Of a stretch of 64,000 nt of DNA, positions 54,700-56,948 are shown in pieces (within the stretch, counting starts at the first letter, position 1; each line of letters opens with the position of its first letter). Made by a program: the position numbers and the translations under genes. The notes under the pieces are model-generated. The model saw only the letters and a list, made by a program, of their open reading frames with translations. It was not told where the DNA came from and made no database searches. The stretch comes from Prochlorococcus sp. AG-436-M02 (GTDB taxonomy: Bacteria; Cyanobacteriota; Cyanobacteriia; PCC-6307; Cyanobiaceae). Location: positions 1-64,000 of the forward strand of contig QCPL01000001.1 of assembly GCA_003212515.1 (NCBI GenBank), given 5' to 3'.

Positions 54700-56034
<1,335 letters not shown>

Positions 56035-56053: not shown

Positions 56054-56948
56054 ATGGCTTTAATCTTGCCACGTGGTTATCACAAAATCTCAGCAGTTGA
56101 GCGAAATCATATTTCATGGATAGAGCCAGATTTAGCAAAGCGACAAGATATAAGGCCTCTAAGGATTGGTATATTAAATATTATGCCCTTAGGTAAGCAA
56201 TATGAATTTAATCTTCTTCATCCGCTTGGTCTTTCTCCACTCCAAATAGAACCTATTTGGATAAGACTAAGCACGCATAATTATAAAACTTGGGATTTAT
56301 CTCATTTATCAGAACATTACGTTGGATGGGAAGAAGCAATGTCTCCAAATCCTTTAGACGGATTAATTATTACTGGAGCTCCAGTTGAACACTTAGCTTT
56401 TGAGGATGTTAACTATTGGTCTGAATTAGTTAAACTTATTAACGAAGCGAGGAAATACTGTGCAAGTACTTTAGGACTTTGCTGGGCTGGATTTGCGCTT
56501 GCTTATTTGGCTGGTGTGAATAAAAAGGTTTTTGAGAAAAAGCTTTTTGGTGTTTTTAAAATGAAGAGTCTTATTCCTGCTCATTCAATTATGGGTACTC
56601 AAGATGATACTTTTTTCTGTCCTCAAAGTAGACATGCAGGTTTACCGGATGATGAGATGGAAAAAGCTCAGGAAAAAGGTTTATTGAGACTTTTAGCTTA
56701 TGGTGAGAAAGTAGGATATACAATTTTTGAAACAGTTGATCAACGTCAGCTTATGCATTTGGGACATCCAGAATATACCGTTGCAAGATTACTTTCAGAA
56801 ATGGAGAGAGATAAAGCAAGAGGAGATGTGCCCCCCCCCAGAAAATTTCTACCCTGATAATCCTAAGACTTCTTGGAGGTCTCATAGAAATTTAATGTTT
56901 CAACAATGGCTTTGGTTTTGTTATCAGCGAGTAAGCCTTAAAAATTAA
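56054..56948 (+). CDS. metA: homoserine O-acyl(acetyl)transferase, frameshifted in a C9 tract
   Basis: A MetA family enzyme that acylates homoserine. The catalytic Cys143 is in STLGLCWAGFALAYLAGV, and His/Glu are in LMHLGHPEYTVAR. The residue that sets acyl-donor choice (E112 in ITGAPVEHLAFE, equivalent to position 111) is Glu, which is associated with acetyl-CoA use and fits metY next door. The frame runs into a nine-C run (56831-56839) and terminates at 56857 as PPPRKFLP. If one C is removed it continues ENFYPDNPKTSWRSHRNLMF and QQWLWFCYQRVSLKN to 56948, the family's true C-terminus (about 297 residues). Real frameshift, slippage or base error are possible. Confidence 0.88.

What the first reader, a model, noticed from the sequence alone, without database searches (positions are those of the whole stretch)
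56820..56948. Nine-cytosine tract puts the conserved C-terminus of MetA out of frame
Seen: the metA frame reaches GTG followed by CCCCCCCCC (56831-56839) and stops at 56857 with an unrelated tail. The +1 frame after the tract encodes ENFYPDNPKTSWRSHRNLMF and more, matching the MetA family end (WRSHxNLLF-type). One fewer C would restore a full 297-residue enzyme. A G/C homopolymer of this length is rare in such an AT-rich genome. Known: such tracts drive transcriptional slippage or phase variation in other bacteria. Inference: methionine synthesis could be tuned or switched by tract length, or this is an assembly error.
Basis: partly seen in the sequence, partly recalled or inferred. Interest (0 to 1): 0.75.

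Follow-up and report, generated by a model that had tools for sequence, protein, structure and literature searches.

The report
Extra cytosine breaks metA reading frame
One extra C in a run of cytosines puts the end of a methionine-synthesis gene out of frame in this Prochlorococcus draft genome; single-cell draft genomes of the group show the same kind of one-base slip in many unrelated essential genes, and the complete genomes checked do not, so it is most likely an amplification or assembly error and not a genetic switch.

Summary
C9 lies at 56831-56839. The metA frame (56054-56857, 267 aa) leaves its family there, and the missing C-terminus (ENF...WRSHRNLMFQQWLWFCYQRVSLKN) is in the next frame, ending at 56948. 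All 80 closest relatives are full length (296-311 aa) in one frame, and none has more than five Cs at the site.

The switch or tuning reading is not supported. The tract is private to this assembly. Its genome is a fragmented draft (53 contigs, 82.8% complete); six of the ten other drafts in its genus match named single-cell genomes.

At G/C runs of 9 or more inside recognisable genes, drafts of the group are frameshifted in 8 of 21 cases (Fisher p = 0.0036), in unrelated housekeeping genes (genes like icd, aroC, priA, queC, pstS, by my reading). Near-complete genomes show 0 of 19. Every draft shift is one extra G/C, the signature published for whole-genome (multiple displacement) amplification artefacts. 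In the same genome 86 A/T runs of 8 or more inside genes carry no frameshift.

Best reading: a +1 slip in a C8 run, probably made during single-cell amplification or assembly (about 0.68). Rival: a real, private slippage mutation (about 0.25). A programmed or phase-variable metA is about 0.05.

The parts
56054..56857 (+). metA (homoserine O-acyltransferase, PF04204), read as a 267-aa frame that leaves the family at the C tract
56831..56839 (+). C9 homopolymer, one C more than the family frame allows
56841..56948 (+). the conserved C-terminal 35 codons of metA (ENFYPDNPKTSWRSHRNLMFQQWLWFCYQRVSLKN) plus stop, in the +1 frame
54709..56034 (+). neighbouring ORF upstream, sulfhydrylase-like (MetY-type) by inspection, 19 bases before metA; context only
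   Evidence: identity read by eye, not tested

Best explanation
The C9 is a +1 slip in what is a C8 run (CCC CCC CCA GAA) in the living organism. It was most likely introduced when the DNA of a single cell was copied by phi29-type whole-genome amplification, or when homopolymer reads were resolved in assembly. The real gene then encodes an ordinary 297-residue MetA. Shown: the extra base relative to the family, the intact conserved tail in the next frame, its absence from 80 relatives, and the excess of identical +1 G/C lesions in draft over near-complete genomes. Inferred: that this unnamed draft is a single-cell genome, and that the base was added in vitro.
For: All 80 nearest homologues are intact, with 5 or fewer Cs at the site. 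The genome is a 53-contig, 82.8% complete draft; six of the ten other drafts in its genus are the same DNA as named single-cell genomes such as AG-363-C02, AG-409-K04 and AG-436-C13, from plates described in PMC6122165. At G/C runs of 9 or more, draft genomes have 8 frameshifts to 13 in frame, and near-complete genomes 0 to 19, p = 0.0036. The hit genes are unrelated and mostly housekeeping, and all shifts are +1, including a second one in this genome at G8 in a HEAT-repeat-like gene. An icd-like gene has G10 and is broken in one draft, while another draft with nearly identical flanks has G9 in frame. Within this genome, 554 aligned genes (518 kb) show only two frameshifts, and 86 A/T runs of 8 or more show none. 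Published amplification artefacts have the same profile: mostly insertions, G/C, in homopolymers, frameshifting (PMC5467262). The single-cell pipeline itself reports about 3 indels per 100 kb in benchmark cultures. The tail is still conserved: 4-15 synonymous and 4-9 nonsynonymous codon differences of 35 against four relatives. No MetX-type enzyme is found in the genome to replace it.
Against: The other long G/C run with clear homology in this genome (G10 in a glgC-like gene) is in frame, so errors are not universal. Raw reads could not be seen. The window's own genome has no name here, so its single-cell origin is inferred. The comparison of drafts with near-complete genomes mixes genera and uses 40 classified tracts.
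Confidence: 0.68

Rival explanations
1. The C9 is real: a recent, private replication-slippage mutation (C8 to C9) in this one cell or strain, which truncates MetA or leaves it dependent on occasional ribosomal or transcriptional slippage. It is ordinary mutation at a mutable run, not a system.
For: Long G/C runs are mutation hotspots, and bypass at homonucleotide runs including C and G has been measured (PMC3812077). CCC-C is the classic +1-slippery proline sequence, up to about 1% in E. coli when placed at codon 2 (PMC4519876). Both tRNA-Pro isoacceptors (GGG and UGG) are present in the genome. The conserved tail shows that any real event is recent.
Against: Standing loss-of-function alleles should be rare, yet 8 of 21 classified runs of 9 or more in draft genomes are broken, including genes like icd, aroC and priA that a photoautotroph should need, against 0 of 19 in near-complete genomes. 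No alternative homoserine acyltransferase was found in the draft.
Confidence: 0.25
2. The tract is a functional switch: metA is tuned by tract length (phase variation) or by programmed +1 frameshifting or transcriptional slippage at CCC-CCC-CCC-A.
For: Sequence anatomy is compatible: a slippery proline run, an open +1 frame with the conserved tail, and a 0-frame stop 18 bases after the tract. Poly-C phase variation and +1 shifting at CCC are known elsewhere.
Against: No relative out of 80 has the tract or a split frame; all avoid it with CCT/CCA/CCG codons. Singleton frameshifts are, in the survey of PMC3711429, typical of indel mutations or sequencing errors, whereas programmed ones cluster across relatives. 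The same lesion occurs at G/C runs of unrelated genes.
Confidence: 0.05
3. The short 267-aa MetA is a normal, functional variant.
For: The catalytic-type motifs (LCWAG, HLGHPEY) lie upstream of the tract and are intact (motif roles from general knowledge of the family).
Against: All 80 closest homologues keep the tail, with NF......T.WRSHRNL.FQQWLWFCYQ.VSL at 95% or more in the marked columns. The family profile runs to position 298.
Confidence: 0.02

Closest known systems
Homopolymer indel artefacts of whole-genome (multiple displacement) amplification (Buckley et al. 2017, PMC5467262)
   Same: Single-base insertion, G/C, inside a homopolymer, loss-of-function frameshift, enriched in amplified samples
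   Different: Described for human exomes and variant calling; here seen in draft, single-cell-type Prochlorococcus assemblies, where assembly as well as amplification may contribute
Poly-C/poly-G phase-variable loci of pathogens (for example type III methyltransferase genes)
   Same: Coding G/C tract whose length sets the frame
   Different: Here the tract is not shared by relatives, the gene is biosynthetic, and there is no evidence of length polymorphism within the species
+1 ribosomal frameshifting at CCC-C / CCC-N (Listeria phage PSA, pheL; tRNA-Pro UGG/GGG)
   Same: Proline CCC run followed by an open +1 frame
   Different: No conservation of a shift site in any relative, and no stop codon or stimulator at the site
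MetA, homoserine O-acyltransferase (PF04204; solved relatives 2GHR, 2VDJ, 2H2W, 6MTG, 7CBE)
   Same: Sequence and family match over residues 3-267, and the tail in the next frame
   Different: The reading frame as assembled lacks the last ~35 residues

Membership tests
MetA / HTS (PF04204) | Significant match to the family profile | tested here: met
   E = 2.7e-84, positions 2-264 of 298; tail ORF 248-296
MetA / HTS (PF04204) | Full-length single frame including the C-terminal WRSHRNL...WFCYQ block | tested here: not met
   Frame stops at 56857; block is in the +1 frame
Amplification/assembly homopolymer indel artefact | Single G/C insertion in a G/C run, frameshifting | tested here: met
   C8 to C9 relative to family frame
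Amplification/assembly homopolymer indel artefact | Lesion class enriched in amplified or draft genomes over unamplified complete ones | tested here: met
   8/21 versus 0/19, p = 0.0036; draft status used as proxy for amplification, confirmed by name for six genomes
Amplification/assembly homopolymer indel artefact | Raw or unamplified reads show the shorter run | not testable with these tools
   No reads held
Phase-variable (slipped-strand) locus | Tract retained at the same site in relatives | tested here: not met
   At most 5 Cs in 80 relatives
Phase-variable (slipped-strand) locus | Mixed tract lengths within one population | not testable with these tools
   One genome per species is held; no reads
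Programmed +1 frameshift gene | Conserved shift site and split frame across orthologues | tested here: not met
   All 80 orthologues are in one frame
Programmed +1 frameshift gene | Measured production of the fused product | not testable with these tools
   Needs proteomics or a reporter

The most novel reading that the evidence does not exclude
In this uncultured Prochlorococcus lineage the C tract in metA is real and variable in length, so that methionine synthesis is switched off and on by slippage, with partial rescue by +1 frameshifting on CCC-C.
Probability: 0.05. Interest if true: 0.6.

Novelty: not a real feature. Interest (0 to 1): 0.13.

Why it matters
As biology it is probably nothing. 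As a caution it is useful: draft (single-cell) Prochlorococcus genomes carry recurrent +1 frameshifts at G/C runs of 8 or more, so an apparent loss of genes such as metA, or those resembling icd, aroC and priA, from such genomes should not be read as auxotrophy or gene decay without checking the tract. If the metA tract were real and variable, it would be a rare case of a biosynthetic contingency locus in a free-living photoautotroph.

Tried and rejected
(1) A normal short C-terminus was rejected: 80 of 80 relatives are full length. (2) A conserved tract was rejected: at most 5 Cs at the site. (3) A generally error-ridden assembly was rejected: two frameshifts in 518 kb of aligned coding sequence. 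(4) Replacement by MetX: none found in the draft, with the caveat of 82.8% completeness. (5) Absence of tRNA-Pro GGG, which would favour slippage, was rejected: both isoacceptors are present. (6) Three apparent frameshifts in near-complete genomes turned out to be a non-coding tract just upstream of rpoA and were removed, together with four in-frame calls at the same leader. (9) Three literature searches for cyanobacterial or methionine parallels gave nothing specific to metA. (10) The bias toward +1 was not used as a formal test, because selecting runs of 8 or 9 and longer favours finding insertions.

Full report
Observation. The sequence is as described. C9 occupies 56831-56839, the 0-frame of metA runs 56054-56857 (267 aa), and the overlapping +1 ORF (56727-56948) carries ENFYPDNPKTSWRSHRNLMFQQWLWFCYQRVSLKN. 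Pfam HTS (PF04204) is split across the two: positions 2-264 in the first ORF and 248-296 of 298 in the second. NCBIfam MetA models match in the same way. It is the only C7+/G7+ run in the window.

Family comparison. The 80 closest homologues in GTDB species genomes (77-91% identity, Prochlorococcus and close relatives) are all 296-311 codons in one frame and all have the tail. The site is normally CCT CCT CCT/CCA GAA, with no more than five consecutive Cs. The window reads GTG CCC CCC CCC A GAA, most simply CCC CCC CCA GAA with one extra C. The tail is still conserved: 4-15 synonymous and 4-9 nonsynonymous codon differences of 35 against four relatives. The lesion is therefore recent or not real. 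No MetX-type homoserine acetyltransferase was found in the genome.

Is the assembly generally bad? No. Reference ORFs from a near-complete congener (G002) were aligned to 812 kb of the window's own genome: 554 genes, about 518 kb of coding sequence, two frameshifts. One is metA; the other is in a diverged gene near C12:5252. In those genes there are 86 A/T runs of 8 or more and none is frameshifted. A further frameshift was seen by eye at a G8 run in a HEAT-repeat-like gene at C2:39322. The genome has four G/C runs of 9 or more in the 812 kb, where Markov models expect none. One of them, G10 in a glgC-like gene, is in frame.

Draft versus near-complete genomes. G/C runs of 9 or more were collected from 30 near-complete genomes and 31 drafts of the family. 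Those lying inside genes with a homologue in another genome were classified automatically. After removing seven cases that are one non-coding tract upstream of rpoA, the tally is near-complete 19 in frame and 0 shifted, drafts 13 in frame and 8 shifted, Fisher p = 0.0036; p = 0.020 if two cases near gene ends are also dropped. The shifted genes are unrelated (names by my reading of the translations): metA, aroC, icd, queC, pstS, priA, a hemF-like gene and a HEAT-repeat gene. Each has one extra G/C. The icd pair is telling: G9 in frame in G004 and G10 broken in G012, with nearly identical flanks.

Status of the drafts. Six of the ten other drafts in this genus (G005, G006, G008, G010, G011, G013) are the same DNA as named Prochlorococcus records from plates AG-436, AG-412, AG-409, AG-363 and AG-439. 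PMC6122165 describes these plates as single cells amplified by MDA or WGA-X.

Mechanism. MDA-enriched indels in human data are mostly insertions, richer in G/C, in homopolymers and frameshifting (PMC5467262). The single-cell workflow reports about 3 indels per 100 kb in benchmark cultures, so one lesion of this kind is well inside its error budget. The parsimonious reading is a C8-to-C9 slip made in vitro or in assembly. A real mutation in that cell is the main rival. Even then the CCC-CCC-CCC-A context would give at most low-level rescue: about 1% +1 shifting was reported at CCC-C in its most slippery position in E. coli (PMC4519876). A switch or programmed frameshift would be expected to leave a conserved site in relatives, and there is none; singleton frameshift genes are considered likely indels or errors in PMC3711429.

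Limits. No reads are available. Only 40 tracts could be classified; they come from several genera and not every tract per genome was fetched. Near-complete status is used as a proxy for unamplified DNA.

Noticed in passing
Genomes G221, G237, G229, G159, G126, G144, G213 (loci behind): A poly-C tract of variable length (C9 to C16) lies in the leader just upstream of rpoA in seven near-complete genomes of one Prochlorococcus-like genus (g17). It is non-coding and its length differs between species; it could affect rpoA expression.
   Followed up: partly
G000:C2:39322-39329 (locus L096): A second G/C-run frameshift in the window's own genome: G8 in a HEAT-repeat-like gene, frame restored in homologues with one G fewer.
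   Followed up: partly
G000:C12 around 5252 (locus L117): A possible frameshift near a C5 in a diverged gene (57% identity to the reference); not resolved.
   Followed up: no
G020, G004, G012, G008, G005, G010 (loci L317, L251, L272, L257, L254, L266, L267): +1 frameshifts at G/C runs of 9 to 11 in genes read as aroC-, priA-, icd-, hemF-, queC-, pstS- and HEAT-repeat-like in draft genomes.
   Followed up: yes
Genus-wide: Drafts of the genus carry G/C runs up to 14 long, while the three near-complete genomes stop at 9.
   Followed up: partly
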